Origin: Lutraria lutraria
Taxonomy: Eukaryota; Mollusca; Bivalvia; Venerida; Mactridae
Assembly (NCBI GenBank): GCA_964023205.1
Contig: OZ026844.1
Coordinates: forward strand, 10,650,790-10,714,789
Reading direction: 5' to 3'
Length of the DNA stretch: 64,000 nucleotides
Every line of letters begins with the position of its first letter. Position 1 is the stretch's first letter. Both the position numbers and the translations under genes were made by a program. A model generated the notes under the pieces. That model did not search any database, had not been told where the DNA came from, and saw only the letters and a list, made by a program, of their open reading frames with translations. Of this stretch, positions 1,793-64,000 are shown piece after piece.

Positions 1793-1797
1793 TTTGT

Positions 1798-4041: not shown

Positions 4042-4047
4042 TTTGTA

Positions 4048-12073: not shown

Positions 12074-12146
12074 TACCCGATGCGGGACTCAAACCCAGGA
12101 CCTTCTGCTTGCAAATCAAATGCTTAAACAACTGAGCTAATCCGGC
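12074..12146 (-). tRNA. tRNA-Ala(TGC)-like gene or pseudogene / SINE head
   Basis: The reverse complement folds as a 73-nt cloverleaf: acceptor GCCGGAT/ATCGGGT (six of seven pairs), D arm GCTC/AAGC, anticodon loop TTTGCAA with anticodon TGC, T arm with loop TTTGAGT, and discriminator A. The A box is tagctcagttgt and the B box is ggtttgagtcc, one base off consensus. Mismatches occur at about one pair in each stem (4-69, 13-22, 31-39, 49-65), which argues for a pseudogene or a tRNA-derived SINE head. TTTT follows six bases after the 3' end, so Pol III termination would be possible. No intron is present. Confidence 0.6.
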
Positions 12147-18181: not shown

Positions 18182-21100
18182 TACTGTCTACAATTAAAGA
18201 ATAAATGAAAGATAAAAATTTGTTGTAAAGCGTCCGCACCAAAAATTTTTCTCTCCATCTGCCATTTCTAAAATGTTAATAAATTCCAAAGTAAACGTAG
18301 CATGACCAAGCCTTTTGTGCCACTGACTTCCATTGATGTCTTTTACTAGCATGTGTACTTTCAATGTTGTAGACCAAATAATGGTACAGAGTTTGCAAAT
18401 CAAAGACTTTCAGCAACTCTCGAAAACTTTTCACACAAATGGTTATTTCTAGAATTTCAATAATGTCAAAAGTAAGCAGAGCATAGCAAATTCAATTTTG
18501 CCACTAACTTTTGTTCATGCCAACTACTTGTAAGTAAAGTTGCATTCATGTACCAACAACGCTTAAGGAGAAATTAAAAAATTAGATTTGTCAAAAAATC
18601 TTGACGCTAGGAAATTTTCTCACAAACTGTCGTTTCTGGAAATGTAATAAAACCTAAAGTAACCATACCATACCAAATCTGTTCTCATCACAGATTTCTA
18701 TTGATCCACACTACTTGTATGTAATAGTCCCATGTTTGTACTGTCTACAATTAAAGAATAAATGAAAGATAAAAATTTGTTGTAAAGCGTCCGCACCAAA
18801 AATTTTTCTCTCCAACTGCCATTTCTAAAATGTTAATAAATTCCAAAGTAAACGTAGCATGACCAAGCCTTTTGTGCCACTGACTTCCATTGATGTCTTT
18901 TACTAGCATGTGCACTTTCAATGTTGTAGACCAAATAATGGTACAGAGTTTGCAAATCAAAGACTTTCAGCAACTCTCGAAAACTTTTCACACAAATGGT
19001 TATTTCTAGAATTTCAATAATGTCAAAAGTAAGCAGAGCATAGCAAATTCAATTTTGCCACTAACTTTTGTTCATGCCAACTACTTGTAAGTAAAGTTGC
19101 ATTCATGTACCAACAATGCTTAAGGAGAAATTAAAAAATTAGATTTGTCAAAAAATCTTGACGCTAGGAAATTTTCTCACAAACTGTCGTTTCTAGAAAT
19201 GTAGTAAAACCAAAAGTAACCATACCTTACCAAATCTATTCTCATCACAGATTTTCATTGATCCACACTAGTTGTATGTAATAGTCCCATGTTTGTACTG
19301 TCTAGAATTAAAGAATAAATGAAAGATAAAAATTTGTTGTAAAGCGTCCGCACCAAATAATTTTCTCTCCAACTGCCATTTCTAAAATGTTAATAAATTC
19401 CAAAGTAAACGTAGCATGACCAAGCCTTTTGTGCCACTGACTTCCATTGATGTCTTTTACTAGCATGTGCACTTTCAATGTTGTAGACAAAATGATGGTA
19501 GAGATATTGCAAATCAAAGACTTTCAGCAACTCATGGAAACTTTTCACGCAAATGGTTATTTCTAGAATTTCAATAATGTCAAAAGTAAGCAGAGCATAG
19601 CAAATTCAATTTTGCCACTAACTTTTGTTCATGCCAACTACTTGTAAGTAAAGTTGCATTCATGTACCAACAACGCTTAAGGAGAAATTAAAAAATTAGA
19701 TTTGTCAAAAAATCTTGACGCTAGGAAATTTTCTCACAAACTGTCGTTTCTAGAAATGTAATAAAACCAAAAGTAACCATACCATACCAAATCTGTTCTC
19801 ATCACAGATTTCCATTGATCCACACTACTTGTATGTAATAGTCCCATGTTTGTACTGTCTACAATTAAAGAATAAATGAAAGATAAAAATTTGTTGTAAA
19901 GCGTCCGCACCAAAACATTTTCTCTCCAACTGCCATTTCTAAAATGTTAATAAATTCCAAAGTAAACGTAGCATGACCAAGCCTTTTGTGCCACTGACTT
20001 CCATTGATGTCTTTTACTAGCATGTGCACTTTCAATGTTGTAGACCAAATAATGGTACAGAGTTTGCAAATCAAAGACTTTCAGCAACTCTCGAAAACTT
20101 TTCACGCAAATGGTTATTTCTAGAATTTCAATAATGTCAAAAGTAAGCAGTGCATAGCAAATTCAACTTTGCCACTAACTTTTGTTCATGCCAACTACTT
20201 GTAAGTAAAGTTGCATTCATGTACCAACAATGCTTAAGGAGAAATTAAAAAATTAGATTTGTCAAAAAATCTTGACGCTAGGAAATTTTCTCACAAACTG
20301 TCGTTTCTAGAAATGTAGTAAAACCAAAAGTAACCATACCATACCAAATCTGTTCTCATCACAGGTTTTCATTGATCCACACTAGTTGTATGTAATAGTC
20401 CCATGTTTGTACTGTCTACAATTAAAGAATAAATGAAAGATAAAAATTTGTTGTAAAGCGTCCGCACCAAAAAATTTTCTCTCCAACTGCCATTTCTAAA
20501 ATGTTAATAAATTCCAAAGTAAACGTAGCATGACCAAGCCTTTTGTGCCACTGACTTCCATTGATGTCTTTTACTAGCATGTGCACTTTCAATGTTGTAG
20601 ACAAAATAATAGTAGAGATATTGCAAATCAAAGACTTTCAGCAACTCTTGGAAACTTTTCACGCAAATGGTTATTTCTAGAATTTCAATAATGTCAAAAG
20701 TAAGCAGAGCATAGCAAATTCAATTTTGCCACTAACTTTTGTTCATGCCAACTACTTGTAAGTAAAGTTGCATTCATGTACCAACAACGCTTAAGGAGAA
20801 ATTAAAAAATTAGATTTGTCAAAAAATCTTGACGCTAGGAAATTTTCTCACAAACTGTCGTTTCTGGAAATGTAATAAAACCTAAAGTAACCATACCATA
20901 CCAAATCTGTTCTCATCACAGATTTCTATTGATCCACACTACTTGTATGTAATAGTCCCATGTTTGTACTGTCTACAATTAAAGAATAAATGAAAGATAA
21001 AAATTTGTTGTAAAGCGTCCGCACCAAAAATTTTTCTCTCCAACTGCCATTTCTAAAATGTTAATAAATTCCAAAGTAAACGTAGCATGACCAAGCCTTT

Positions 21101-22043
21101 TGTGCCACTGACTTCCATTGATGTCTTTTACTAGCATGTGCACTTTCAATGTTGTAGACCAAATAATGGTACAGAGTTTGCAAATCAAAGACTTTCAGCA
21201 ACTCTCGAAAACTTTTCACGCAAATGGTTATTTCTAGAATTTCAATAATGTCAAAGGTAAGCAGAGCATAGCAAATTCAATTTTGCCACTAACTTTTGTT
21301 CATGCCAACTACTTGTAAGTAAAGTTGCATTCATGTACCAACAACGCTTAAGGAGAAATTAAAAAATTAGATTTGTCAAAAATCTAGAAATGTAATAAAA
21401 CCAAAAGTAACCATACCATACCAAATCTGTTCTCATCACAGATTTCCATTGATCCACACTAGTTGTATGTAATAGTCCCATGTTTGTACTGTCTACAATT
21501 AAAGAATAAATGAAAGATAAAAATTTGTTGTAAAGCGTCCGCACCAAAAAATTTTCTCTCCAACTGCCATTTCTAAAATGTTAATAAATTCCAAAGTAAA
21601 CGTAGCATGACCAAGCCTTTTGTGCCACTGACTTCCATTGATGTCTTTTACTAGCATGTGCACTTTCAATGTTGTAGACAAAATAATGGTAGAGATATTG
21701 CAAATCAAAGACTTTCAGCAACTCTTGGAAACTTTTCACGCAAATGGTTATTTCTAGAATTTCAATAATGTCAAAAGTAAGCAGAGCATAGCAAATTCAA
21801 TTTTGCCACTAACTTTTGTTCATGCCAACTACTTGTAAGTAAAGTTGCATTCATGTACCAACAACGCTTAAGGAGAAATTAAAAAATTAGATTTGTCAAA
21901 AAATCTTGACGCTAGGAAATTTTCTCACAAACTGTCGTTTCTGGAAATGTAATAAAACCTAAAGTAACCATACCATACCAAATCTGTTCTCATCACAGAT
22001 TTCTATTGATCCACACTACTTGTATGTAATAGTCCCATGTTTG
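18182..22043. repeat. Array edge zone, alternating monomer types
   Basis: Monomers here alternate between type K (ggtacagagtttgcaaat, for example 18383-18400) and type N (ggtagagatattgcaaat, for example 19497-19514). Together they give a loose dimer of about 1,114 bp. The first monomer carries private changes (ctccatctgcc near 18255, cacacaaatgg near 18431), as expected at an array border. The first 520-bp monomer has its deletion at about 21384. Confidence 0.75.
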
Positions 22044-25000
22044 TACTGTCTAGAATTAAAGAATAAATGAAAGATAAAAATTTGTTGTAAAGCGTCCGCA
22101 CCAAAAATTTTTCTCTCCAACTGCCATTTCTAAAATGTTAATAAATTCCAAAGTAAACGTAGCATGACCAAGCCTTTTGTGCCACTGACTTCCATTGATG
22201 TCTTTTACTAGCATGTGCACTTTCAATGTTGTAGACCAAATAATGGTACAGAGTTTGCAAATCAAAGACTTTCAGCAACTCTCGAAAACTTTTCACGCAA
22301 ATGGTTATTTCTAGAATTTCAATAATGTCAAAGGTAAGCAGAGCATAGCAAATTCAATTTTGCCACTAACTTTTGTTCATGCCAACTACTTGTAAGTAAA
22401 GTTGCATTCATGTACCAACAACGCTTAAGGAGAAATTAAAAAATTAGATTTGTCAAAAATCTAGAAATGTAATAAAACCAAAAGTAACCATACCATACCA
22501 AATCTGTTCTCATCACAGATTTCCATTGATCCACACTACTTGTATGTAATAGTCCCATGTTTGTACTGTCTAGAATTAAAGAATAAATGAAAGATAAAAA
22601 TTTGTTGTAAAGCGTCCGCACCAAAAATTTTTCTCTCCAACTGCCATTTCTAAAATGTTAATAAATTCCAAAGTAAACGTAGCATGACCAAGCCTTTTGT
22701 GCCACTGACTTCCATTGATGTCTTTTACTAGCATGTGCACTTTCAATGTTGTAGACGAAATAATGGTAGAGATATTGCAAATCAAAGACTTTCAGCAACT
22801 CTCGAAAACTTTTCACGCAAATGGTTATTTCTAGAATTTCAATAATGTCAAAAGTAAGCAGAGCATAGCAAATTCAACTTTGCCACTAACTTTTGTTCAT
22901 GCCAACTACTTGTAAGTAAAGTTGCATTCATGTACCAACAATGCTTAAGGAGAAATTAAAAAATTAGATTTGTCAAAAAATCTTGACGCTAGGAAATTTT
23001 CTCACAAACTGTCGTTTCTAGAAATGTAGTAAAACCAAAAGTAACCATACCATACCAAATCTGTTCTCATCACAGGTTTTCATTGATCCACACTAGTTGT
23101 ATGTAATAGTCCCATGTTTGTACTGTCTACAATTAAAGAATAAATGAAAGATAAAAATTTGTTGTAAAGCGTCCGCACCAAAAAATTTTCTCTCCAACTG
23201 CCATTTCTAAAATGTTAATAAATTCCAAAGTAAACGTAGCATGACCAAGCCTTTTGTGCCACTGACTTCCATTGATGTCTTTTACTAGCATGTGCACTTT
23301 CAATGTTGTAGACAAAATAATGGTAGAGATATTGCAAATCAAAGACTTTCAGCAACTCTTGGAAACTTTTCACGCAAATGGTTATTTCTAGAATTTCAAT
23401 AATGTCAAAAGTAAGCAGAGCATAGCAAATTCAATTTTGCCACTAACTTTTGTTCATGCCAACTACTTGTAAGTAAAGTTGCATTCATGTACCAACAACG
23501 CTTAAGGAGAAATTAAAAAATTAGATTTGTCAAAAAATCTTGACGCTAGGAAATTTTCTCACAAACTGTCGTTTCTGGAAATGTAATAAAACCTAAAGTA
23601 ACCATACCATACCAAATCTGTTCTCATCACAGATTTCTATTGATCCACACTACTTGTATGTAATAGTCCCATGTTTGTACTGTCTAGAATTAAAGAATAA
23701 ATGAAAGATAAAAATTTGTTGTAAAGCGTCCGCACCAAAAATTTTTCTCTCCAACTGCCATTTCTAAAATGTTAATAAATTCCAAAGTAAACGTAGCATG
23801 ACCAAGCCTTTTGTGCCACTGACTTCCATTGATGTCTTTTACTAGCATGTGCACTTTCAATGTTGTAGACCAAATAATGGTACAGAGTTTGCAAATCAAA
23901 GACTTTCAGCAACTCTTGAAAACTTTTCACGCAAATGGTTATTTCTAGAATTTCAATAATGTCAAAGGTAAGCAGAGCATAGCAAATTCAATTTTGCCAC
24001 TAACTTTTGTTCATGCCAACTACTTGTAAGTAAAGTTGCATTCATGTACCAACAACGCTTAAGGAGAAATTAAAAAATTAGATTTGTCAAAAATCTAGAA
24101 ATGTAATAAAACCAAAAGTAACCATACCATACCAAATCTGTTCTCATCACAGATTTCCATTGATCCACACTACTTGTATGTAATAGTCCCATGTTTGTAC
24201 TGTCTAGAATTAAAGAATAAATGAAAGATAAAAATTTGTTGTAAAGCGTCCGCACCAAAAATTTTTCTCTCCAACTGCCATTTCTAAAATGTTAATAAAT
24301 TCCAAAGTAAACGTAGCATGACCAAGCCTTTTGTGCCACTGACTTCCATTGATGTCTTTTACTAGCATGTGCACTTTCAATGTTGTAGACGAAATAATGG
24401 TAGAGATATTGCAAATCAAAGACTTTCAGCAACTCTCGAAAACTTTTCACGCAAATGGTTATTTCTAGAATTTCAATAATGTCAAAAGTAAGCAGAGCAT
24501 AGCAAATTCAACTTTGCCACTAACTTTTGTTCATGCCAACTACTTGTAAGTAAAGTTGCATTCATGTACCAACAATGCTTAAGGAGAAATTAAAAAATTA
24601 GATTTGTCAAAAAATCTTGACGCTAGGAAATTTTCTCACAAACTGTCGTTTCTAGAAATGTAGTAAAACCAAAAGTAACCATACCATACCAAATCTGTTC
24701 TCATCACAGGTTTTCATTGATCCACACTAGTTGTATGTAATAGTCCCATGTTTGTACTGTCTACAATTAAAGAATAAATGAAAGATAAAAATTTGTTGTA
24801 AAGCGTCCGCACCAAAAAATTTTCTCTCCAACTGCCATTTCTAAAATGTTAATAAATTCCAAAGTAAACGTAGCATGACCAAGCCTTTTGTGCCACTGAC
24901 TTCCATTGATGTCTTTTACTAGCATGTGCACTTTCAATGTTGTAGACAAAATAATGGTAGAGATATTGCAAATCAAAGACTTTCAGCAACTCTTGGAAAC

Positions 25001-26908: not shown

Positions 26909-28116
26909 TACTGTCTAGAATTAAAGAATAAATGAAAGATAAAAATTTGTTGTAAAGCGTCCGCACCAAAACATTTTCTCTCCAACTGCCATTTCTAAAA
27001 TGTTAATAAATTCCAAAGTAAACGTAGCATGACCAAGCCTTTTGTGCCACTGACTTCCATTGATGTCTTTTACTAGCATGTGCACTTTCAATGTTGTAGA
27101 CAAAATAATGGTAGAGATATTGCAAATCAAAGACTTTCAGCAACTCTTGGAAACTTTTCACGCAAATGGTTATTTCTAGAATTTCAATAATGTCAAAAGT
27201 AAGCAGAGCATAGCAAATTCAATTTTGCCACTAACTTTTGTTCATGCCAACTACTTGTAAGTAAAGTTGCATTCATGTACCAACAACGCTTAAGGAGAAA
27301 TTAAAAAATTAGATTTGTCAAAAATCTAGAAATGTAATAAAACCAAAAGTAACCATACCATACCAAATCTGTTCTCATCACAGATTTCCATTGATCCACA
27401 CTACTTGTATGTAATAGTCCCATGTTTGTACTGTCTAGAATTAAAGAATAAATGAAAGATAAAAATTTGTTGTAAAGCGTCCGCACCAAAAATTTTTCTC
27501 TCCAACTGCCATTTCTAAAATGTTAATAAATTCCAAAGTAAACGTAGCATGACCAAGCCTTTTGTGCCACTGACTTCCATTGATGTCTTTTACTAGCATG
27601 TGCACTTTCAATGTTGTAGACGAAATAATGGTAGAGATATTGCAAATCAAAGACTTTCAGCAACTCTCGAAAACTTTTCACGCAAATGGTTATTTCTAGA
27701 ATTTCAATAATGTCAAAAGTAAGCAGAGCATAGCAAATTCAACTTTGCCACTAACTTTTGTTCATGCCAACTACTTGTAAGTAAAGTTGCATTCATGTAC
27801 CAACAATGCTTAAGGAGAAATTAAAAAATTAGATTTGTCAAAAAATCTTGACGCTAGGAAATTTTCTCACAAACTGTCGTTTCTAGAAATGTAGTAAAAC
27901 CAAAAGTAACCATACCATACCAAATCTGTTCTCATCACAGGTTTTCATTGATCCACACTAGTTGTATGTAATAGTCCCATGTTTGTACTGTCTACAATTA
28001 AAGAATAAATGAAAGATAAAAATTTGTTGTAAAGCGTCCGCACCAAAAAATTTTCTCTCCAACTGCCATTTCTAAAATGTTAATAAATTCCAAAGTAAAC
28101 GTAGCATGACCAAGCC

Positions 28117-31100
28117 TTTTGTGCCACTGACTTCCATTGATGTCTTTTACTAGCATGTGCACTTTCAATGTTGTAGACAAAATAATGGTAGAGATATTGC
28201 AAATCAAAGACTTTCAGCAACTCTTGGAAACTTTTCACGCAAATGGTTATTTCTAGAATTTCAATAATGTCAAAAGTAAGCAGAGCATAGCAAATTCAAT
28301 TTTGCCACTAACTTTTGTTCATGCCAACTACTTGTAAGTAAAGTTGCATTCATGTACCAACAACGCTTAAGGAGAAATTAAAAAATTAGATTTGTCAAAA
28401 AATCTTGACGCTAGGAAATTTTCTCACAAACTGTCGTTTCTGGAAATGTAATAAAACCTAAAGTAACCATACCATACCAAATCTGTTCTCATCACAGATT
28501 TCTATTGATCCACACTACTTGTATGTAATAGTCCCATGTTTGTACTGTCTAGAATTAAAGAATAAATAAAGATAAAAATTTGTTGTAAAGCGTCCGCACC
28601 AAAAATTTTTCTCTCCAACTGCCATTTCTAAAATGTTAATAAATTCCAAAGTAAACGTAGCATGACCAAGCCTTTTGTGCCACTGACTTCCATTGATGTC
28701 TTTTACTAGCATGTGCACTTTCAATGTTGTAGACCAAATAATGGTACAGAGTTTGCAAATCAAAGACTTTCAGCAACTCTCGAAAACTTTTCACGCAAAT
28801 GGTTATTTCTAGAATTTCAATAATGTCAAAGGTAAGCAGAGCATAGCAAATTCAATTTTGCCACTAACTTTTGTTCATGCCAACTACTTGTAAGTAAAGT
28901 TGCATTCATGTACCAACAACGCTTAAGGAGAAATTAAAAAATTAGATTTGTCAAAAATCTAGAAATGTAATAAAACCAAAAGTAACCATACCATACCAAA
29001 TCTGTTCTCATCACAGATTTCCATTGATCCACACTACTTGTATGTAATAGTCCCATGTTTGTACTGTCTAGAATTAAAGAATAAATGAAAGATAAAAATT
29101 TGTTGTAAAGCGTCCGCACCAAAAATTTTTCTCTCCAACTGCCATTTCTAAAATGTTAATAAATTCCAAAGTAAACGTAGCATGACCAAGCCTTTTGTGC
29201 CACTGACTTCCATTGATGTCTTTTACTAGCATGTGCACTTTCAATGTTGTAGACGAAATAATGGTAGAGATATTGCAAATCAAAGACTTTCAGCAACTCT
29301 CGAAAACTTTTCACGGAAATGGTTATTTCTAGAATTTCAATAATGTCAAAGGTAAGCAGAGCATAGCAAATTCAATTTTGCCACTAACTTTTGTTCATGC
29401 CAACTACTTGTAAGTAAAGTTGCATTCATGTACCAACAACGCTTAAGGAGAAATTAAAAAATTAGATTTGTCAAAAAATCTTGACGCTAGGAAATTTTCT
29501 CACAAACTGTCGTTTCTAGAAATGTAATAAAACCAAAAGTAACCATACCATACCAAATCTGTTCTCATCACAGATTTCCATTGATCCACACTACTTGTAT
29601 GTAATAGTCCCATGTTTGTACTGTCTAGAATTAAAGAATAAATGAAAGATAAAAATTTGTTGTAAAGCGTCCGCACCAAAACATTTTCTCTCCAACTGCC
29701 ATTTCTAAAATGTTAATAAATTCCAAAGTAAACGTAGCATGACCAAGCCTTTTGTGCCACTGACTTCCATTGATGTCTTTTACTAGCATGTGCACTTTCA
29801 ATGTTGTAGACAAAATAATGGTAGAGATATTGCAAATCAAAGACTTTCAGCAACTCTTGGAAACTTTTCACGCAAATGGTTATTTCTAGAATTTCAATAA
29901 TGTCAAAAGTAAGCAGAGCATAGCAAATTCAATTTTGCCACTAACTTTTGTTCATGCCAACTACTTGTAAGTAAAGTTGCATTCATGTACCAACAACGCT
30001 TAAGGAGAAATTAAAAAATTAGATTTGTCAAAAATCTAGAAATGTAATAAAACCAAAAGTAACTATACCATACCAAATCTGTTCTCATCACAGATTTCCA
30101 TTGATCCACACTACTTGTATGTAATAGTCCCATGTTTGTACTGTCTACAATTAAAGAATAAATGAAAGATAAAAATTTGTTGTAAAGCGTCCGCACCAAA
30201 AATTTTTCTCTCCAACTGCCATTTCTAAAATGTTAATAAATTCCAAAGTAAACGTAGCATGACCAAGCCTTTTGTGCCACTGACTTCCATTGATGTCTTT
30301 TACTAGGATGTGCACTTTCAATGTTGTAGACGAAATAATGGTAGAGATATTGCAAATCAAAGACTTTCAGCAACTCTCGAAAACTTTTCACGCAAATGGT
30401 TATTTCTAGAATTTTCAATAATGTCAAAGGTAAGCAGAGCATAGCAAATTCAATTTTGCCACTAACTTTTGTTCATGCCAACTACTTGTAAGTAAAGTTG
30501 CATTCATGTACCAACAACGCTTAAGGAGAAATTAAAAAATTAGATTTGTCAAAAAATCTTGACGCTAGGAAATTTTCTCACAAACTGTCGTTTCTAGAAA
30601 TGTAATAAAACCAAAAGTAACCATACCATACCAAATCTGTTCTCATCACAGATTTCCATTGATCCACACTAGTTGTATGTAATAGTCCCATGTTTGTACT
30701 GTCTACAATTAAAGAATAAATGAAAGATAAAAATTTGTTGTAAAGCGTCCGCACCAAAAAAATTTCTCTCCAACTGCCATTTCTAAAATGTTAATAAATT
30801 CTAAAGTAAACGTAGCATGACCAAACCTTTTGTGCCACTGACTTCCATTGATGTCTTTTACTAGCATGTGCACTTTCAATGTTGTAGACAAAATAATGGT
30901 AGAGATATTGCAAATCAAAGACTTTCAGCAACTCTTGGAAACTTTTCACGCAAATGGTTATTTCTAGAATTTCAATAATGTCAAAAGTAAGCAGAGCATA
31001 GCAAATTCAATTTTGCCACTAACTTTTGTTCATGCCAACTACTTGTAAGTAAAGTTGCATTCATGTACCAACAACGCTTAAGGAGAAATTAAAAAATTAG

Positions 31101-46900: not shown

Positions 46901-47931
46901 GCAACTCTTGGAAACTTTTCACGCAAATGGTTATTTCTAGAATTTCAATAATGTCAAAGGTAAGCAGAGCATAGCAAATTCAATTTTGCCACTAACTTTT
47001 GTTCATGCCAACTACTTGTAAGTAAAGTTGCATTCATGTACCAACAACGCTTAAGGAGAAATTAAAAAATTAGATTTGTCAAAAATCTAGAAATGTAATA
47101 AAACCAAAAGTAACCATACCATACCAAATCTGTTCTCATCACAGATTTCCATTGATCCACACTACTTGTATGTAATAGTCCCATGTTTGTACTGTCTAGA
47201 ATTAAAGAATAAATGAAAGATAAAAATTTGTTGTAAAGCGTCCGCACCAAAAAATTTTCTCTCCAACTGCCATTTCTAAAATGTTAATAAATTCCAAAGT
47301 AAACGTAGCATGACCAAGCCTTTTGTGCCACTGACTTCCATTGATGTCTTTTACTAGCATGTGCACTTTCAATGTTGTAGACAAAATAATGGTAGAGATA
47401 TTGCAAATCAAAGACTTTCAGCAACTCTTGGAAACTTTTCACGCAAATGGTTATTTCTAGAATTTCAATAATGTCAAAGGTAAGCAGAGCATAGCAAATT
47501 CAATTTTGCCACTAACTTTTGTTCATGCCAACTACTTGTAAGTAAAGTTGCATTCATGTACCAACAACGCTTAAGGAGAAATTAAAAAATTAGATTTGTC
47601 AAAAATCTAGAAATGTAATAAAACCAAAAGTAACCATACCATACCAAATCTGTTCTCATCACAGATTTCCATTGATCCACACTACTTGTATGTAATAGTC
47701 CCATGTTTGTACTGTCTAGAATTAAAGAATAAATGAAAGATAAAAATTTGTTGTAAAGCGTCCGCACCAAAAATTTTTCTCTCCAACTGCCATTTCTAAA
47801 ATGTTAATAAATTCCAAAGTAAACGTAGCATGACCAAGCCTTTTGTGCCACTGACTTCCATTGATGTCTTTTACTAGCATGTGCACTTTCAATGTTGTAG
47901 ACCAAATAATGGTAGAGATATTGCAAATCAA
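37998..47931. repeat. Higher-order repeat copy A' (one extra short monomer)
   Basis: Second copy of the 18-monomer block. By eye only a handful of substitutions separate it from A, for example cagaatttgc at 43012 against cagagtttgc at 33131, and cacgaaatattt at 43381. Near its end it carries an additional 520-bp monomer (junctions at 47087 and 47607) not present in A. Confidence 0.9.
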
Positions 47932-48824
47932 AGACTTTCAGCAACTCTCGAAACATTTTCACGCAAATGGTTATTTCTAGAATTTCAATAATGTCAAAGG
48001 TAAGCAGAGCATAGCAAATTCAATTTTGCCACTAACTTTTGTTCATGCCAACTACTTGTAAGTAAAGTTGCATTCATGTACCAACAACGCTTAAGGAGAA
48101 ATTAAAAAATTAGATTTGTCAAAAAAATCTTGACGCTAGGAAATTTTCTCACAAACTGTCGTTTCTAGAAATGTAATAAAACCAAAAGTAACCATACCAT
48201 ACCAAATCTGTTCTCATCACAGATTTCCATTGATCCACACTACTTGTATGTAATAGTCCCATGTTTGTACTGTCTACAATTAAAGAATAAATGAAAGATA
48301 AAAATTTGTTGTAAAGCGTCCGCACCAAAAAATTTTCTCTCCAACTGCCATTTCTAAAATGTTAATAAATTCCAAAGTAAACGTAGCATGACCAAGCCTT
48401 TTGTGCACTGACTTCCATTGATGTCTTTTACTAGCATGTGCACTTTCAATGTTGTAGACCAAATAATGGTACAGAGTTTGCAAATCAAAGACTTTCAGCA
48501 ACTCTCGAAAACTTTTCACGCAAATGGTTATTTCTAGAATTTCAATAATGTCAAAAGTAAGCAGAGCATAGCAAATTCAATTTTGCCACTAACTTTTGTT
48601 CATGCCAACTACTTGTAAGTAAAGTTGCATTCATGTACCAACAACGCTTAAGGAGAAATTAAAAAATTAGATTTGTCAAAAAATCTTGACGCTAGGAAAT
48701 TTTCTCACAAACTGTCGTTTCTGGAAATGTAATAAAACCTAAAGTAACCATACCATACCAAATCTGTTCTCATCACAGATTTCTATTGATCCACACTACT
48801 TGTATGTAATAGTCCCATGTTTGT

Positions 48825-51800: not shown

Positions 51801-54800
51801 TCAGCAACTCTTGGAAACTTTTCACGCAAATGGTTATTTCTAGAATTTCAATAATGTCAAAAGTAAGCAGAGCATAGCAAATTCAATTTTGCCACTAACT
51901 TTTGTTCATGCCAACTACTTGTAAGTAAAGTTGCATTCATGTACCAACAACGCTTAAGGAGAAATTAAAAAATTAGATTTGTCAAAAAATCTTGACGCTA
52001 GGAAATTTTCTCACAAACTGTCGTTTCTGGAAATGTAATAAAACCTAAAGTAACCATACCATACCAAATCTGTTCTCATCACAGATTTCTATTGATCCAC
52101 ACTACTTGTATGTAATAGTCCCATGTTTGTACTGTCTACAATTAAAGAATAAATGAAAGATAAAAATTTGTTGTAAAGCGTCCGCACCAAAAATTTTTCT
52201 CTCCAACTGCCATTTCTAAAATGTTAATAAATTCCAAAGTAAACGTAGCATGACCAAGCCTTTTGTGCCACTGACTTCCATTGATGTCTTTTACTAGCAT
52301 GTGCACTTTCAATGTTGTAGACCAAATAATGGTACAGAGTTTGCAAATCAAAGACTTTCAGCAACTCTCGAAAACTTTTCACGCAAATGGTTATTTCTAG
52401 AATTTCAATAATGTCAAAGGTAAGCAGAGCATAGCAAATTCAATTTTGCCACTAACTTTTGTTCATGCCAACTACTTGTAAGTAAAGTTGCATTCATGTA
52501 CCAACAACGCTTAAGGAGAAATTAAAAAATTAGATTTGTCAAAAAATCTTGACGCTAGGAAATTTTCTCACAAACTGTCGTTTCTAGAAATGTAATAAAA
52601 CCAAAAGTAACCATACCATACCAAATCTGTTCTCATCACAGATTTCCATTGATCCACACTACTTGTATGTAATAGTCCCATGTTTGTACTGTCTACAATT
52701 AAAGAATAAATGAAAGATAAAAATTTGTTGTAAAGCGTCCACACCAAAAAATTTTCTCTCCAACTGCCATTTCTAAAATGTTAATAAATTCCAAAGTAAA
52801 CGTAGCATGACCAAGCCTTTTGTGCCACTGACTTCCATTGATGTCTTTAACTAGCATGTGCACTTTCAATGTTGTAGACAGAATAATGGTAGAGATATTG
52901 CAAATCAAAGACTTTCAGCAACTCTTGGAAACTTTTCACGCAAATGGTTATTTCTAGAATTTCAATAATGTCAAAGGTAAGCAGAGCATAGCAAATTCAA
53001 TTTTGCCACTAACTTTTGTTCATGCCAACTACTTGTAAGTAAAGTTGCATTCATGTACCAACAACGCTTAAGGAGAAATTAAAAAATTAGATTTGTCAAA
53101 AAATCTTGACGCTAGGAAATTTTCTCACAAACTGTCGTTTCTAGAAATGTAATAAAACCAAAAGTAACCATACCATACCAAATCTGTTCTCATCACAGAT
53201 TTCTATTGATCCACACTACTTGTATGTAATAGTCCCATGTTTGTACTGTCTACAATTAAAGAATAAATGAAAGATAAAAATTTGTTGTAAAGCGTCCGCA
53301 CCAAAAAATTTTCTCTCCAACTGCCATTTCTAAAATGTTAATAAATTCCAAAGTAAACGTAGCATGACCAAGCCTTTTGTGCCACTGACTTCCATTGATG
53401 TCTTTTACTAGCATGTGCACTTTCAATGTTGTAGACGAAATAATGGTAGAGATATTGCAAATCAAAGACTTTCAGCAACTCTCGAAAACTTTTCACGCAA
53501 ATGGTTATTTCTAGAATTTCAATAATGTCAAAGGTAAGCAGAGCATAGCAAATTCAATTTTGCCACTAACTTTTGTTCATGCCAACTACTTGTAAGTAAA
53601 GTTGCATTCATGTACCAACAACGCTTAAGGAGAAATTAAAAAATTAGATTTGTCAAAAAATCTTGACGCTAGGAAATTTTCTCACAAACTGTCGTTTCTA
53701 GAAATGTAATAAAACCAAAAGTAACCATACCATACCAAATCTGTTCTCATCACAGATTTCCATTGATCCACACTACTTGTATGTAATAGTCCCATGTTTG
53801 TACTGTCTACAATTAAAGAATAAATGAAAGATAAAAATTTGTTGTAAAGCGTCCGCACCAAAAAATTTTCTCTCCAACTGCCATTTCTAAAATGTTAATA
53901 AATTCCAAAGTAAACGTAGCATGACCAAACCTTTTGTGCCACTGACTTCCATTGATGTCTTTTACTAGCATGTGCACTTTCAATGTTGTAGACCAAATAA
54001 TGGTACAGAGTTTGCAAATCAAAAACTTTCAGCAACTCTCGGAAACTTTTCATGCAAATGGTTATTTCTAGATTTTCAATAATGTCAAAAGTAAGCAGAG
54101 CATAGCAAATTCAACTTTGGCACTAACTTTTCTTCATGCCAACTACTTGTAAGTAAAGTTGCATTCATGTACCAACAATGCTTAAGGAGAAATTAAAAAA
54201 TTAGATTTGTCAAAAAATCTTGACGCTAGGAAATTTTCTCACAAACTGTCGTTTCTAGAAATGTAATAAAACCAAAAGTAACCATACCATACCAAATCTG
54301 TTCTCATCACAGATTTCCATTGATCCACACTACTTGTATGTAATAGTCCCATGTTTTGTACTGTCTACAATTAAAGAATAAATGAAAGATAAAAATTTGT
54401 TGTAAAGCGTCCGCACCAAAAAATTTTCTCTCCAACTGCCATTTCTAAAATGTTAATAAATTCCAAAGTAAACGTAGCATGACCAAACCTTTTGTGCCAC
54501 TGACTTCCATTGATGTCTTTTACTAGCATGTGCACTTTCAATGTTGTAGACAAAATAATGGTAGAGATATTGCAAATCAAAGACTTTCAGCAACTCTTGG
54601 AAACTTTTCACGCAAATGGTTATTTCTAGAATTTCAATAATGTCAAAGGTAAGCAGAGCATAGCAAATTCAATTTTGCCACTAACTTTTGTTCATGCCAA
54701 CTACTTGTAAGTAAAGTTGCATTCATGTACCAACAACGCTTAAGGAGAAATTAAAAAATTAGATTTGTCAAAAATCTAGAAATGTAATAAAACCAAAAGT

Positions 54801-55660
54801 AACCATACCATACCAAATCTGTTCTCATCACAGATTTCCATTGATCCACACTACTTGTATGTAATAGTCCCATGTTTGTACTGTCTAGAATTAAAGAATA
54901 AATGAAAGATAAAAAATTTGTTGTAAAGCGTCCGCACCAAAAAATTTTCTCTCCAACTGCCATTTCTAAAATGTTAATAAATTCCAAAGTAAACGTAGCA
55001 TGACCAAGCCTTTTGTGCCACTGACTTCCATTGATGTCTTTTACTAGCATGTGCACTTTCAATGTTGTAGACCAAATAATGGTAGAGATATTGCAAATCA
55101 AAGACTTTCAGCAACTCTCGAAACATTTTCACGCAAATGGTTATTTCTAGAATTTCAATAATGTCAAAGGTAAGCAGAGCATAGCAAATTCAATTTTGCC
55201 ACTAACTTTTGTTCATGCCAACTACTTGTAAGTAAAGTTGCATTCATGTACCAACAACGCTTAAGGAGAAATTAAAAAATTAGATTTGTCAAAAAATCTT
55301 GACGCTAGGAAATTTTCTCACAAACTGTCGTTTCTAGAAATGTAATAAAACCAAAAGTAACCATACCATACCAAATCTGTTCTCATCACAGATTTCCATT
55401 GATCCACACTACTTGTATGTAATAGTCCCATGTTTGTACTGTCTACAATTAAAGAATAAATGAAAGATAAAAATTTGTTGTAAAGCGTCCGCACCAAAAA
55501 ATTTTCTCTCCAACTGCCATTTCTAAAATGTTAATAAATTCCAAAGTAAACGTAGCATGACCAAGCCTTTTGTGCCACTGACTTCCATTGATGTCTTTTA
55601 CTAGCATGTGCACTTTCAATGTTGTAGACCAAATAATGGTACAGAGTTTGCAAATCAAAG
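48825..55660. repeat. Higher-order repeat copy A'' (shortened)
   Basis: Third copy, starting with the K monomer that precedes the gtgcctgtgac variant (49520) and running to about 55660. Its monomers match A' at an offset of 7,689 bp. It lacks the first several monomers of the A unit. It shares acttttcttcatgcc with A (36550 and 54125), whereas A' has acttttgttcatgcc (46436). Confidence 0.88.
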
Positions 55661-55784
55661 ACTTTCAGCAACTCTCGAAAACTTTTCACGCAAATGGTTA
55701 TTTCTAGAATTTCAATAATGTCAAAAGTAAGCAGAGCATAGCAAATTCAATTTTGCCACTAACTTTTGTTCATGCAAACTACTT

Positions 55785-58700
55785 GTAAGTAAAGTTGCAT
55801 TCATGTACCAACAACGCTTAAGGAGAAATTAAAAAATTAGATTTGTCAAAAAATCTTGACGCTAGGAAATTTTCTCACAAACTGTCGTTTCTAGAAATGT
55901 AATAAAACCAAAAGTAACCATACCATACCAAATCTGTTCTCATCACAGATTTCCATTGATCCACACTACTTGTATGTAATAGTCCCATGTTTGTACTGTC
56001 TACAATTAAAGAATAAATGAAAGATAAAAAATTGTTGTAAAGCGTCCGCACCAAAAAATTTTCTCTCCAACTGCCATTTCTAAAATGTTAATAAATTCCA
56101 AAGTAAACGTAGCATGACCAAACCTTTTGTGCCACTGACTTCCATTGATGTCTTTTACTAGCATGTGCACTTTCAATGTTGTAGACCAAATAATGGTACA
56201 GAGTTTGCAAATCAAAAACTTTCAGCAACTCTCGGAAATTTTTCATGCAAATGGTTATTTCTAGAATTTCAATAATGTCAAAAGTAAGCAGAGCATAGCA
56301 AATTCAACTTTGCCACTAACTTTTGTTCATGCCAACTACTTGTAAGTAAAGTTGCATTCATGTACCAACAATGCTTAAGGAGAAATTAAAAAATTAGATT
56401 TGTCAAAAAATCTTGACGCTAGGAAATTTTCTCACAAACTGTCGTTTCTAGAAATGTAGTAAAACCAAAAGTAACCATACCATACCAAATCTGTTCTCAT
56501 CACAGATTTTCATTGATCCACACTAGTTGTATGTAATAGTCCCATGTTTGTACTGTCTAGAATTAAAGAATAAATGAAAGATAAAAATTTGTTGTAAAGC
56601 GTCCGCACCAAAATTTTTTCTCTCAAACTGCCATTTCTAAAATGTTAATAAATTCCAAAGTAAACGTAGCATGACCAAGCCTTTTGTGCCACTGACTTCC
56701 ATTGATGTCTTTTACTAGCATGTGCACTTTCAATGTTGTAGACAAAATAATGGTAGAGATATTGCAAATCAAAGACTTTCAGCAACTCTTGGAAACTTTT
56801 CACGCAAATGGTTATTTCTAGAATTTCAATAATGTCAAAAGTAAGCAGAGCATAGCAAATTCAATTTTGCCACTAACTTTTGTTCATGCCAACTACTTGT
56901 AAGTAAAGTTGCATTCATGTACCAACAACGCTTAAGGAGAAATTAAAAAATTAGATTTGTCAAAAAATCTTGACGCTAGGAAATTTTCTCACAAACTGTC
57001 GTTTCTGGAAATGTAATAAAACCTAAAGTAACCATACCATACCAAATCTGTTCTCATCACAGATTTCTATTGATCCACACTACTTGTATGTAATAGTCCC
57101 ATGTTTGTACTGTCTACAATTAAAGAATAAATGAAAGATAAAAATTTGTTGTAAAGCGTCCGCACCAAAAATTTTTCTCTCCAACTGCCATTTCTAAAAT
57201 GTTAATAAATTCCAAAGTAAACGTAGCATGACCAAGCCTTTTGTGCCACTGACTTCCATTGATGTCTTTTACTAGCATGTGCACTTTCAATGTTGTAGAC
57301 CAAATAATGGTACAGAGTTTGCAAATCAAAGACTTTCAGCAACTCTCGAAAACTTTTCACGCAAATGGTTATTTCTAGAATTTCAATAATGTCAAAGGTA
57401 AGCAGAGCATAGCAAATTCAATTTTGCCACTAACTTTTGTTCATGCCAACTACTTGTAAGTAAAGTTGCATTCATGTACCAACAACGCTTAAGGAGAAAT
57501 TAAAAAATTAGATTTGTCAAAAAATCTTGACGCTAGGAAATTTTCTCACAAACTGTCGTTTCTAGAAATGTAATAAAACCAAAAGTAACCATACCATACC
57601 AAATCTGTTCTCATCACAGATTTCCATTGATCCACACTACTTGTATGTAATAGTCCCATGTTTGTACTGTCTACAATTAAAGAATAAATGAAAGATAAAA
57701 AATTGTTGTAAAGCGTCCGCACCAAAAAATTTTCTCTCCAACTGCCATTTCTAAAATGTTAATAAATTCCAAAGTAAACGTAGCATGACCAAACCTTTTG
57801 TGCCACTGACTTCCATTGATGTCTTTTACTAGCATGTGCACTTTCAATGTTGTAGACCAAATAATGGTACAGAGTTTGCAAATCAAAAACTTTCAGCAAC
57901 TCTCGGAAATTTTTCATGCAAATGGTTATTTCTAGAATTTCAATGATGTCAAAAGTAAGCAGAGCATAGCAAATTCAACTTTGCCACTAACTTTTGTTCA
58001 TGCCAACTACTTGTAAGTAAAGTTGCATTCATGTACCAACAATGCTTAAGGAGAAATTAAAAAATTAGATTTGTCAAAAAATCTTGACGCTAGGAAATTT
58101 TCTCACAAACTGTCGTTTCTAGAAATGTAGTAAAACCAAAAGTAACCATACCATACCAAATCTGTTCTCATCACAGATTTTCATTGATCCACACTAGTTG
58201 TATGTAATAGTCCCATGTTTGTACTGTCTAGAATTAAAGAATAAATGAAAGATAAAAATTTGTTGTAAAGCGTCCGCACCAAAATTTTTTCTCTCAAACT
58301 GCCATTTCTAAAATGTTAATAAATTCCAAAGTAAACGTAGCATGACCAAGCCTTTTGTGCCACTGACTTCCATTGATGTCTTTTACTAGCATGTGCACTT
58401 TCAATGTTGTAGACAAAATAATGGTAGAGATATTGCAAATCAAAGACTTTCAGCAACTCTTGGAAACTTTTCACGCAAATGGTTATTTCTAGAATTTCAA
58501 TAATGTCAAAAGTAAGCAGAGCATAGCAAATTCAATTTTGCCACTAACTTTTGTTCATGCCAACTACTTGTAAGTAAAGTTGCATTCATGTACCAACAAC
58601 GCTTAAGGAGAAATTAAAAAATTAGATTTGTCAAAAAATCTTGACGCTAGGAAATTTTCTCACAAACTGTCGTTTCTGGAAATGTAATAAAACCTAAAGT

Positions 58701-59130
58701 AACCATACCATACCAAATCTGTTCTCATCACAGATTTCTATTGATCCACACTACTTGTATGTAATAGTCCCATGTTTGTACTGTCTACAATTAAAGAATA
58801 AATGAAAGATAAAAATTTGTTGTAAAGCGTCCGCACCAAAAATTTTTCTCTCCAACTGCCATTTCTAAAATGTTAATAAATTCCAAAGTAAACGTAGCAT
58901 GACCAAGCCTTTTGTGCCACTGACTTCCATTGATGTCTTTTACTAGCATGTGCACTTTCAATGTTGTAGACCAAATAATGGTACAGAGTTTGCAAATCAA
59001 AGACTTTCAGCAACTCTCGAAAACTTTTCACGCAAATGGTTATTTCTAGAATTTCAATAATGTCAAAGGTAAGCAGAGCATAGCAAATTCAATTTTGCCA
59101 CTAACTTTTGTTCATGCCAACTACTTGTAA
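55785..59130. repeat. Trimeric higher-order repeat, 1,671 bp, two copies
   Basis: Variant groups repeat 1,671 bp apart. Examples are aaaaaattgttg (56026 and 57697), cggaaatttttcatg (56232 and 57903) and ttctctcaaactg (56617 and 58288). All monomers in this block are full length. The copies differ by caatgatgtc at 57941. Confidence 0.85.
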
Positions 59131-62100
59131 GTAAAGTTGCATTCATGTACCAACAACGCTTAAGGAGAAATTAAAAAATTAGATTTGTCAAAAAATCTTG
59201 ACGCTAGGAAATTTTCTCACAAACTGTCGTTTCTAGAAATGTAATAAAACCAAAAGTAACCATACCATACCAAATCTGTTCTCATCACAGATTTCCATTG
59301 ATCCACACTACTTGTATGTAATAGTCCCATGTTTGTACTGTCTAGAATTAAAGAATAAATGAAAGATAAAAATTTGTTGTAAAGCGTCCGCACCAAAAAA
59401 TGTTCTCTCCAACTGCCATTTCTAAAATGTTAATAAATTCCAAAGTAAACGTAGCATGACCAAGCCTTTTGTGCCACTGACTTCCATTGATGTCTTTTAC
59501 TAGCATGTGCACTTTCAATGTTGTAGACGAAATAATGGTAGAGATATTGCAAATCAAAGACTTTCAGCAACTCTCGAAAACTTTTCACGCAAATGGTTAT
59601 TTCTAGAATTTCAATAATGTCAAAGGTAAGCAGAGCATAGCAAATTCAATTTTGCCACTAACTTTTGTTCATGCCAACTACTTGTAAGTAAAGTTGCATT
59701 CATGTACCAACAACGCTTAAGGAGAAATTAAAAAATTAGATTTGTCAAAAAATCTTGACGCTAGGAAATTTTCTCACAAACTGTCGTTTCTAGAAATGTA
59801 ATAAAACCAAAAGTAACCATACCATACCAAATCTGTTCTCATCACAGATTTCCATTGATCCACACTACTTGTATGTAATAGTCCCATGTTTGTACTGTCT
59901 ACAATTAAAGAATAAATGAAAGATAAAAATTTGTTGTAAAGCGTCCGCACCAACAAATTTTCTCTCCAACTGCCATTTCTAAAATGTTAATAAATTCCAA
60001 AGTAAACGTAGCATGACCAAGCCTTTTGTGCCACTGACTTCCATTGATGTCTTTTACTAGCATGTGCACTTTCAATGTTGTAGACCAAATAATGGTACAG
60101 AGTTTGCAAATCAAAGACTTTCAGCAACTCTCGAAAACTTTTCACGCAAATGGTTATTTCTAGAATTTCAATAATGTCAAAAGTAAGCAGAGCATAGCAA
60201 ATTCAATTTTGCCACTAACTTTTGTTCATGCAAACTACTTGTAAGTAAAGTTGCATTCATGTACCAACAATGCTTAAGGAGAAATTAAAAAATTAGATTT
60301 GTCAAAAAATCTTGACGCTAGGAAATTTTCTCACAAACTGTCGTTTCTAGAAATGTAATAAAACCTAAAGTAACCATACCATACCAAATCTGTTCTCATC
60401 ACAGATTTCCATTGATCCACACTACTTGTATGTAATAGTCCCATGTTTGTACTGTCTACAATTAAAGAATAAATGAAAGATACAAATTTGTTGTAAAGCG
60501 TCCGCACCAAAAAATTTTCTCTCCAACTGCCATTTCTAAAATGTTAATAAATTCCAAAGTAAACGTAGCATGACCAAACCTTTTGTGCCACTGACTTCCA
60601 TTGATGTCTTTTACTAGCATGTGCACTTTCAATATTGTAGACCAAATAATGGTAGAGATATTGCAAATCAAAGACTTTCAGCAACTCTCGGAAACTTTTC
60701 ACGCAAATGGTTATTTCTAGAATTTCAATAATGTCAAAAGTAAGCAGAGCATAGCAAATTCAATTTTGCCACTAACTTTTGTTCATGCCAACTACTTGTA
60801 AGTAAAGTTGCATTCATGTACCAACAATGCTTAAGGAGAAATTAAAAAATTAGATTTGTCAAAAAATCTTGACGCTAGGAAATTTTCTCACAAACTGTCG
60901 TTTCTAGAAATGTAGTAAAACCAAAAGTAACCATATCTTACCAAATCTGTTCTCATCACAGATTTCCATTGATCCACACTACTTGTATGTAATAGTCCCA
61001 TGTTTGTACTGTCTACAATTAAAGAATAAATGAAAGATAAAAATTTGTTGTAAAGCGTCCGCACCAACAAATTTTCTCTCCAACTGCCATTTCTAAAATG
61101 TTAATAAATTCCAAAGTAAACGTAGCATGACCAAGCCTTTTGTGCCACTGACTTCCATTGATGTCTTTTACTAGCATGTGCACTTTCAATGTTGTAGACA
61201 AAATAATGGTAGAGAGTTTGCAAATCAAAGACTTTCAGCAACTCTCGGAAACTTTTCACGCAAATGGTTATTTCTAGAATTTCAATAATGTCAAAAGTAA
61301 GCAGAGCATAGCAAATTCAATTTTGCCACTAACTTTTGTTCATGCCAACTACTTGTAAGTAAAGTTGCATTCATGTACCAACAACGCTTAAGGAGAAATT
61401 AAAAAATTAGATTTGTCAAAAAATATTGACGCTAGGAAATTTTCTCACGTTTCTAGAAATGTAATAAAACCAAAAGTAACCATACCATACCAAATCTGTT
61501 CTCATCACAGATTTCCATTGATCCACACTACTTGTATGTAATAGTCCCATGTTTGTACTGTCTACAATTAAAGAATAAATGAAAGATAAAAATTTGTTGT
61601 AAAGCGTCCGCACCAAAAAATTTTCTCTCCAACTGCCATTTCTAAAATGTTAATAAATTCCAAAGTAAACGGAGCATGACCAAGCCTTTTGTGCCACTGA
61701 CTTCTATTGATGTCTTTTACTAGCATGTGCACTTTCAATGTTGTAGACAAAATAATGGTAGAGATATTGCAAATCAAAGACTTTCAGCAACTCTCGGAAA
61801 CTTTTCACGCAAATGGTTATTTCTAGAATTTCAATAATGTCAAAAGTAAGCAGAGCATAGCAAATTCAATTTTGCCACTAACTTTTGTTCATGCCAACTA
61901 CTTGTAAGTAAAGTTGCATTCATGTACCAACAACGCTTAAGGAGAAATTAAAAAATTAGATTTGTCAAAAAATCTTGACGCTAGGAAATTTTCTCACAAA
62001 CTGTCGTTTCTAGAAATGTAATAAAACCTAAAGTAACCATACCATACCAAATCTGTTCTCATCACAGATTTCCATTGATCCACCTACTTGTATGTAATAG

Positions 62101-63678
62101 TCCCATGTTTGTACTGTCTACAATTAAAGAATAAATGAAAGATAAAAATTTGTTGTAAAGTGTCCACACTAAAAATTTTTCTCTCCAACTGCCATTTCTA
62201 AAATGTTAATAAATTCCAAAGTAAACGTAGCATGACCAAGACTTTTGTGCCACTGACTTCCATTGATGTCTTTTACTAGCATGTGCACTTTCAATGTTGT
62301 AGACAAAATAATGGTAGAGATATTGCAAATCAAAGACTTTCAGCAACTCTCGGAAACTTTTCACGCAAATGGTTATTTCTAGAATTTCAATAATGTCAAA
62401 AGTAAGCAGAGCATAGCAAATTCAATTTTGCCACTAACTTTTGTTCATGCCAACTACTTGTAAGTAAAGTTGCATTCATGTACCAACAACGCTTAAGGAG
62501 AAATTAAAAAATTAGATTTGTCAAAAAATCTTGACGCTAGGAAATTTTCTCACAAACTGTCGTTTCTAGAAATGTAATAAAACCAAAAGTAACCATACCA
62601 TACCAAATCTGTTCTCATCACAGATTTCCATTGATCCACACTACTTGTATGTAATAGTCCCATGTTTGTACTGTCTAGAATTAAAGAATAAATGAAAGAT
62701 AAAAATTTGTTGTAAAGCGTCCGCACCAAAAAATGTTCTCTCCAACTGCCATTTCTAAAATGTTAATAAATTCCAAAGTAAACGTAGCATGACCAAGCCT
62801 TTTGTGCCACTGACTTCCATTGATGTCTTTTACTAGCATGTGCACTTTCAATGTTGTAGACGAAATAATGGTAGAGATATTGCAAATCAAAGACTTTCAG
62901 CAACTCTCGAAAACTTTTCACGCAAATGGTTATTTCTAGAATTTCAATAATGTCAAAGGTAAGCAGAGCATAGCAAATTCAATTTTGCCACTAACTTTTG
63001 TTCATGCCAACTACTTGTAAGTAAAGTTGCATTCATGTACCAACAACGCTTAAGGAGAAATTAAAAAATTAGATTTGTCAAAAAATCTTGACGCTAGGAA
63101 ATTTTCTCACAAACTGTCGTTTCTAGAAATGTAATAAAACCAAAAGTAACCATACCATACCAAATCTGTTCTCATCACAGATTTCCATTGATCCACACTA
63201 CTTGTATGTAATAGTCCCATGTTTGTACTGTCTACAATTAAAGAATAAATGAAAGATAAAAATTTGTTGTAAAGCGTCCGCACCAACAAATTTTCTCTCC
63301 AACTGCCATTTCTAAAATGTTAATAAATTCCAAAGTAAACGTAGCATGACCAAGCCTTTTGTGCCACTGACTTCCATTGATGTCTTTTACTAGCATGTGC
63401 ACTTTCAATGTTGTAGACCAAATAATGGTACAGAGTTTGCAAATCAAAGACTTTCAGCAACTCTCGAAAACTTTTCACGCAAATGGTTATTTCTAGAATT
63501 TCAATAATGTCAAAAGTAAGCAGAGCATAGCAAATTCAATTTTGCCACTAACTTTTGTTCATGCAAACTACTTGTAAGTAAAGTTGCATTCATGTACCAA
63601 CAATGCTTAAGGAGAAATTAAAAAATTAGATTTGTCAAAAAATCTTGACGCTAGGAAATTTTCTCACAAACTGTCGTT
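59071..63678. repeat. Segment duplicated at 3,333 bp spacing
   Basis: 59071-60345 matches 62404-63678 with the same private variants (aaaaaatgttctc at 59394 and 62727; caccaacaaatt at 59949 and 63282; catgcaaactac at 60228 and 63561). After about 63680 the sequence follows 60903 onward instead (offset 2,776 bp), so one monomer was skipped. An intervening monomer lacks 8 bp near 61448. Confidence 0.8.
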
Positions 63679-64000
63679 TCTAGAAATGTAGTAAAACCAA
63701 AAGTAACCATATCTTACCAAATCTGTTCTCATCACAGATTTCCATTGATCCACACTACTTGTATGTAATAGTCCCATGTTTGTACTGTCTACAATTAAAG
63801 AATAAATGAAAGATAAAAATTTGTTGTAAAGCGTCCGCACCAACAAATTTTCTCTCCAACTGCCATTTCTAAAATGTTAATAAATTCCAAAGTAAACGTA
63901 GCATGACCAAGCCTTTTGTGCCACTGACTTCCATTGATGTCTTTTACTAGCATGTGCACTTTCAATGTTGTAGACAAAATAATGGTAGAGAGTTTGCAAA

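What the first reader, a model, noticed from the sequence alone, without database searches (positions are those of the whole stretch)
18182..64000. Large satellite array with nested periods of about 186 bp, 557 bp, 1.6 kb and 9.9 kb
The sequence directly shows at least 83 tandem 557/520-bp monomers. Above the monomer there are zones of dimers, trimers (1,634 and 1,671 bp) and an 18-monomer 9,881-bp unit. Such multi-level order is well known for primate alpha satellite but is rarely documented at base level in molluscs. The family itself is not one I recognise.
Basis: partly seen in the sequence, partly recalled or inferred. Interest (0 to 1): 0.75.

Follow-up and report, generated by a model that had tools for sequence, protein, structure and literature searches.

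The report
Layered clam satellite DNA array
A clam chromosome carries a long block of repeated non-coding DNA built in layers (three old units fused into one, then copied in larger sets), much as human centromere repeats are, and related blocks with their own layering lie elsewhere in the same genome.

Summary
Window 18182-64000 is one uninterrupted head-to-tail array of 83 complete monomers plus one cut monomer. On the contig it runs 12.3 kb further: 58,079 bp, 105 complete monomers plus a 269-bp piece. The 557-bp monomer is itself a fused trimer of ~186-bp units that are 60-64% alike. Above it are local trimers (1,634 and 1,671 bp) and an 18-monomer unit of about 9,881 bp, present as two copies plus a 13-monomer remnant. 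Monomer order is far from random: longest repeated order 17, at most 5 in 2,000 shuffles. COX1 of the assembly is 96% identical to Lutraria (Mactridae), so the mollusc guess is right.

The expected single block is wrong: a 31-bp monomer word occurs 7,460 times in the genome. A second array, on C39, has its own 9-monomer unit and is 91.5% identical to the first, while each is ~98% identical inside.

Best reading: a well-ordered higher-order-repeat satellite family, kept uniform within arrays by in-register unequal exchange. Centromere function is untested. New member of a known kind, uncommon for a bivalve.

The parts
18182..64000 (+). Satellite array: 83 complete monomers and 218 bp of the next. 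On the contig it continues to window-frame position 76260 (105 complete monomers plus a 269-bp piece, 58,079 bp).
   Evidence: BLAST, TRF, contig stretch read beyond the window
18251..18430 (+). Subunit S1 (180 bp) of the first monomer, as an example
   Evidence: Subunit alignment; profile match 18251-18430
18431..18618 (+). Subunit S2 (188 bp) of the first monomer
   Evidence: Subunit alignment; profile match 18432-18618
18619..18807 (+). Subunit S3 (189 bp), running across the chosen monomer start
   Evidence: Subunit alignment
20967..21486 (+). First 520-bp monomer: 37-bp deletion near the S2/S3 border with TCT on both sides; 17 of 83 monomers carry it
21487..24754 (+). Two copies of a trimer E-F-G, 1,634 bp each
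   Evidence: Class string; exact run of 1,633 bp at offset 1,634
27986..37865 (+). 18-monomer unit, copy 1 (monomers 19-36, 9,880 bp)
37866..48267 (+). 18-monomer unit, copy 2 (monomers 37-55, one monomer doubled, 10,402 bp)
48268..55436 (+). 18-monomer unit, 13-monomer remnant (monomers 56-68); its first monomer is of a class of its own
55994..59335 (+). Two copies of a trimer U-M-K, 1,671 bp each
   Evidence: Class string; exact run of 1,399 bp at offset 1,671
17857..18180 (.). Left border: 1.9 copies of an unrelated 171-bp repeat, second copy cut where the satellite begins; related copies near window-frame 216.6 and 244.6 kb
   Evidence: TRF; self-BLAST and no match to the subunit profile

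Best explanation
It is one array of a multi-chromosome, non-coding satellite DNA family in a mactrid clam. An old ~186-bp unit was triplicated, the three copies diverged to 60-64% identity, and the triplet (557 bp) became the repeating unit (the present structure is shown; the order of events is inferred). Within an array, in-register unequal exchange or conversion duplicates blocks of one to eighteen monomers and spreads variants such as the 37-bp deletion (inferred from the pattern). Exchange between arrays is rarer, so each array has its own subfamily and its own higher-order unit (shown for the two arrays read end to end). The likely role is structural heterochromatin; a centromeric or pericentromeric place is possible but untested.
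For: Trimeric monomer. Duplications in whole monomers: all 83 lengths are 549-558 or 519-520 bp. Repeated order of 17 monomers against at most 5 in 2,000 shuffles. Four-gamete pattern in 142 of 703 site pairs within monomers. Two arrays with different higher-order units (18 and 9 monomers), 98.1 and 98.0% identical inside, 91.5% between, 27 fixed differences. Two 168-bp units at the C39 edge that are S3 for 69 bp (97-99%) and S2 for the rest (96-98%), a direct trace of exchange between diverged subunits in register. Samples from C6 and C3 with other unit lengths. 7,460 word matches, reversed-pattern control 0. No long open frame in the monomer (at most 71 codons).
Against: Four-gamete patterns can also come from repeated mutation. 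No read data, FISH or chromatin data were available. C39 is an 82-kb contig with no chromosome assignment, so 'array-specific' rests on two arrays read in full and two short samples. Only the left end shows clearly more private variants (1.5 per monomer in monomers 1-4, 0.07-0.27 elsewhere in the zones counted; 0.2 in the last five), so the idea that array ends age faster is only half borne out.
Confidence: 0.85

Rival explanations
1. The family is the functional centromere DNA of this clam, an independent parallel of alpha satellite, with the invariant 36-bp stretch in S2 as a possible protein site.
For: Units of nucleosome-like length, long homogeneous arrays, array-specific higher-order units. 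A 36-bp stretch is invariant in 150 monomers of two arrays, nominal P 0.007.
Against: No CENP-B box: 0 matches to the nine-base core on either strand of the window, best 6 of 9 in the monomer. The P value is one of eight statistics looked at. Listed copies on C3, C4 and C6 lie 1.8-3.7 Mb apart on one contig, so arrays are not one per chromosome. In oyster, chromatin immunoprecipitation found no centromere-specific repeat (PMC8268682, passages).
Confidence: 0.2
2. The array grew by rolling-circle copying and reinsertion of circular DNA, so the higher-order units are circle lengths.
For: Some blocks are near-perfect repeats (exact runs of 1,633, 4,566 and, on C39, 5,051 bp).
Against: Few copies of each block, one monomer doubled, a 13-monomer remnant starting with an odd monomer, and several block sizes in one array fit stepwise exchange better. 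The two are not mutually exclusive.
Confidence: 0.1
3. The satellite is the amplified core of a mobile element carrying tandem repeats, as described for Helitron-related repeats in bivalves.
For: Both borders of the array meet other tandem-repeat segments: a 171-bp repeat on the left, a ~1.1-kb segment with 3.2 copies of a 162-bp repeat plus a 4-bp microsatellite on the right. Bivalve satellite borders of this kind are in print (PMC5139131, abstract and Results part 1).
Against: Those repeats are unrelated to the monomer: the subunit profile finds nothing in the left flank beyond E 0.14. The right-hand segment lies within the satellite edge (33 bp of satellite follow it), which looks like later insertion or rearrangement.
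Confidence: 0.08
4. The 9.9-kb order is an assembly artefact.
For: Copies are 99.7-99.9% identical and no reads were available.
Against: The copies differ at scattered sites (9 mismatches in 9,324 bp; 13 in 7,170; 16 in 6,612), by a doubled monomer and by the odd monomer at the start of the remnant. The C39 array has its own order. The longest exact run is 4.6 kb, which long reads usually span (recalled).
Confidence: 0.05

Closest known systems
Primate alpha satellite higher-order repeats
   Same: Diverged nucleosome-length units ordered into a larger repeat whose copies are nearly identical; array-specific subfamilies
   Different: Unrelated host, no CENP-B box, base unit ~186 bp; the second layer separates monomers already ~98% alike; no centromere data
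SSUsat of Spisula subtruncata (Mactridae; PMC5537241, passages)
   Same: Tandem satellite of the same bivalve family
   Different: 315 bp, 44% G+C, and no higher-order organisation found there; this one is 557 bp and ~33% G+C. Sequences not aligned; two primer words of SSUsat found no match in the monomer within 3 and 1 mismatches
BIV160/Cg170-type bivalve satellites (PMC5139131, abstract and Results part 1)
   Same: Bivalve tandem repeats, base unit of similar length, abrupt borders, neighbouring mobile-element repeats
Bivalve satellites with internal subrepeats such as phBglII400 and Ac4p1 (PMC5139131, PMC5874043; passages)
   Same: A monomer that is internally repetitive
   Different: Two halves, or a variable number of subrepeats; no multi-monomer layer mentioned in the passages seen
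Higher-order repeats of beetles and other mammals (PMC5615363, passages)
   Same: Higher-order repeats outside primates
   Different: Usually dimeric in the regular beetle cases, or complex with inverted or foreign parts; here all 84 window monomers run one way

Membership tests
Satellite DNA | Long head-to-tail array of similar non-coding monomers | tested here: met
   58,079 bp, 105 complete monomers, mean identity 98.1%, longest open stretch 71 codons
Satellite DNA | High copy number in the genome | tested here: met
   7,460 word matches with up to 3 mismatches, control 0; about 4 Mb or 0.6% of the assembly as a rough estimate
Higher-order-repeat satellite DNA | Diverged units inside a repeat whose copies are nearly identical | tested here: met
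   186 -> 557 bp: units 60-64%, repeats 98.1%
Higher-order-repeat satellite DNA | Multi-monomer unit repeated with the same monomer order | tested here: met
   18-monomer unit, two copies plus remnant; 9-monomer unit on C39. Shallow: monomers within copy 1 average 98.1%
Alpha satellite | Primate ~171-bp monomer with CENP-B box | tested here: not met
   Clam genome; no CENP-B core in the window. It works like one in layering only
Centromeric satellite | CENP-A chromatin or FISH at primary constrictions | not testable with these tools
   No chromatin or cytogenetic data; array sits at 10.67-10.73 Mb of a 37.9-Mb contig
SSUsat (Mactridae) | 315-bp monomer, 44% G+C | tested here: not met
   557 bp, ~33% G+C; no full alignment made
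BIV160/Cg170 | Two conserved sequence boxes in a ~160-170-bp monomer | not tested
   No BIV160 consensus at hand in the text read
Repeat core of a mobile element | Monomers within element ends | tested here: inconclusive
   Border segments carry unrelated repeats; other arrays were not read for this except C39

The most novel reading that the evidence does not exclude
A bivalve has evolved, independently of primates, a centromere-type satellite system: nucleosome-sized units fused into a trimer, higher-order units private to each array, and one protected box under selection.
Probability: 0.15. Interest if true: 0.65.

Novelty: new member of a known kind. Interest (0 to 1): 0.45.

Why it matters
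In the papers I saw, bivalve satellites come mainly from clones and short reads, and oyster arrays are described as scattered with the aid of mobile elements. Here two arrays are read end to end and show base-level higher-order structure, array-specific subfamilies and a frozen case of exchange between diverged subunits. That makes this clam a usable test of how higher-order repeats arise outside primates, and a candidate for the open question of what bivalve centromeres are made of.

Tried and rejected
Searches without result: monomer word and left-border repeat word in viral contigs (0 matches each); monomer word in prokaryote genome contigs (0); the left-border word there gave six single matches (four Selenomonas, one Clostridia, one Scytonema record), taken as chance; plasmid collection, no match. 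Protein searches of two flank frames, no homologue. Pfam on 20 of the flank's open frames (one search lists 48 of 60 aa or more): only matches below the curated cut-offs. Sequence words in papers: one unrelated paper. Rfam: one tRNA match in the window's flank, none in L015-L018, which cover the array's last 2.26 kb and the right flank. ARAGORN found no tRNA in the window.

Rejected: relation of the array to the left-flank repeats; CENP-B box; hairpin-rich monomer (69 of 100 shuffles fold at least as well); coding monomer; a strong ~10-bp AA/TT periodicity (none seen). The conserved box: in C3 and C6 it is partly guaranteed because those places were found with that word, so only C13 and C39 count. 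A tree put all 105 C13 monomers in one clade without C39 monomers, but the support printed at that node was 0.30, perhaps a re-rooting effect, so I do not use it. From the window alone monomers 76-83 looked richer in private variants (0.75 each); with the rest of the array in view they have none, so that reading was dropped.
Full report
What is there. One head-to-tail array fills window 18182-64000: 83 complete monomers and 218 bp of the next, 84 of 84 on the + strand. The window is C13:10650790-10714789 of an unnamed assembly of 728,538,669 bp in 71 contigs; C13 is 37,878,693 bp long. Reading 200 kb further, the array ends at window-frame position 76260 after 105 complete monomers and a 269-bp piece, 58,079 bp in all. 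Both ends are abrupt. On the left the array begins inside the second copy of an unrelated 171-bp repeat. On the right it stops in S2 at a ~1.1-kb segment with 3.2 copies of a 162-bp repeat and a 4-bp microsatellite, followed by 33 bp of satellite and then other sequence.

Layers. The 557-bp monomer is three diverged units of 180, 188 and 189 bp, 60-64% identical pairwise, scoring 34-47 against at most 12 in 200 shuffles. Window monomers are 98.1% identical on average (minimum 95.9%), and 17 of 83 carry a 37-bp deletion with TCT on both sides. At a clustering cut of 0.006 the 83 monomers fall into 26 classes; the number depends on the cut (33 at 0.004, 20 at 0.01). Their order holds E-F-G trimers (1,634 bp), U-M-K trimers (1,671 bp) and an 18-monomer unit, two copies plus a 13-monomer remnant, the copies 99.74-99.89% identical. 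The longest repeated order is 17 monomers against 5 at most in 2,000 shuffles. The part beyond the window is a further zone in which the pair X-Y recurs. Private variants average 1.5 per monomer in monomers 1-4, 0.07-0.14 in monomers 5-75, none in 76-83 and 0.27 in 84-105, so only the left end is clearly older-looking; nearest relatives are less alike at both ends (mean 98.9% for monomers 1-4, 99.5% for 101-105, 99.9% between).

Which organism. COX1 on the mitochondrial contig, read with the invertebrate mitochondrial code, is 96% identical to a Lutraria cluster; the next named hits are Mactra (86%) and Spisula (82%) (the search scored 7,999 candidates and listed 120). So it is a mactrid clam in or near Lutraria; the species is not settled. 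By size it is not the published L. rhynchaena assembly (544 Mb, 622 scaffolds; PMC6880199, passages).

Other arrays. A full-monomer search returned seven places, all on C39, and scored only 2 of 968 first-look candidates. C39 (82,394 bp) holds a second array at 23092-48842 on the other strand: 45 complete monomers, none with the 37-bp deletion, and its own 9-monomer unit of 5,013 bp with an exact 5,051-bp run. Its longest repeated order is 8 monomers against 5 at most in 2,000 shuffles. Monomers are 98.1% (C13) and 98.0% (C39) identical inside the arrays and 91.5% between them, with 27 fixed differences. At the C39 edge two 168-bp units are S3 for their first 69 bp (98.6 and 97.1%) and S2 for the rest (98.0 and 96.0%): a direct trace of exchange between diverged subunits in register. 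A 31-bp word with up to 3 mismatches occurs 3,740 + 3,720 times in the genome, reversed-pattern control 0; at ~0.55 kb per copy that is about 4 Mb or 0.6% of the assembly, a rough figure. Only 100 of these 7,460 places were listed, all exact: 56 on C3, 15 on C4, 29 on C6. Short samples gave a 529-bp unit on C6 (80.7-82.5% to a window monomer by BLAST, gaps counted) and 552-554-bp units on C3 (85.5-86.5%).

How it works. Whole-monomer duplication steps, mosaic monomers (142 of 703 site pairs with all four combinations), a doubled monomer and array-specific uniformity all fit in-register unequal exchange or conversion within arrays. This is the standard account of satellite and higher-order-repeat evolution (PMC5615363, passages). 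Which recombination route acts is not shown, and repeated mutation could add to the mosaic signal. A 36-bp stretch of S2 is invariant in 150 monomers of two arrays (nominal P 0.007), one of eight statistics examined, so it is a hint only.

Against what is known. Regular and complex higher-order repeats are known in primates, other mammals and insects (PMC5615363, passages). Bivalve satellites with internal subrepeats are known (PMC5139131, Results part 1; PMC5874043, passages). In the same family, SSUsat was examined and showed no higher-order organisation (PMC5537241, passages). Oyster satellites are described as largely tied to mobile elements and scattered, with no centromere-specific repeat in C. 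gigas (PMC8268682 and PMC11136912, passages). A word search of the Limnoperna satellitome paper found no mention of higher-order repeats (PMC12818792). My ten paper searches listed no paper that by its title or the start of its abstract describes this family or base-level higher-order repeats in a mactrid; the library holds openly licensed papers only, and no repeat database was available. The finding is therefore a new member of a known kind, well resolved and uncommon for a bivalve, with centromere function open.

Noticed in passing
window 1-5142: A second large tandem structure: a unit of ~2.23-2.25 kb, at least 2.3 copies, running off the left window edge (1-2898 against 2231-5142, 98.3% identical), with broken LINE-like reverse-transcriptase frames (RVT_1 below cut-off) and a ~0.47-kb sub-repeat.
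   Followed up: partly
window 8769-9324: Short tandem repeat of ~157 bp (2.3 copies by TRF); one 90-bp stretch is 71% identical to the 162-bp repeat at the array's right border.
   Followed up: partly
L015 (window-frame 76261-77373): Segment of ~1.1 kb at the right border: a 184-bp 5' part with a related copy near window-frame 93.1 kb, 3.2 copies of a 162-bp repeat, then a 4-bp microsatellite. The layout resembles the CvA/pearl elements described in PMC5874043 (passages); sequence not compared.
   Followed up: partly
L034, L036, L038 (C39:23092-48842): Second array of the family with its own 9-monomer unit and two S3/S2 hybrid 168-bp units at one edge.
   Followed up: yes
L037 (C39:72395-82394): Several unrelated minisatellites (units of 16-44 bp) near the contig end.
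   Followed up: no
L041 (C6:7489001-7494000): 529-bp version of the family; TRF also reports periods of 1,057 and 1,586 bp with more matches (96 and 95% against 93%), so this array may have a dimer or trimer layer.
   Followed up: partly
window 12074-12146 (-): tRNA match above Rfam's cut-off (36.8 bits) that ARAGORN does not report; a similar stretch (84%) lies near window-frame 220.1 kb, so it may be a tRNA-derived repeat.
   Followed up: no
window 340-412 of the monomer alignment (S2), all monomers: Least variable stretch when both arrays are pooled; 36 bp invariant in 150 monomers. Could be a binding site or chance.
   Followed up: partly
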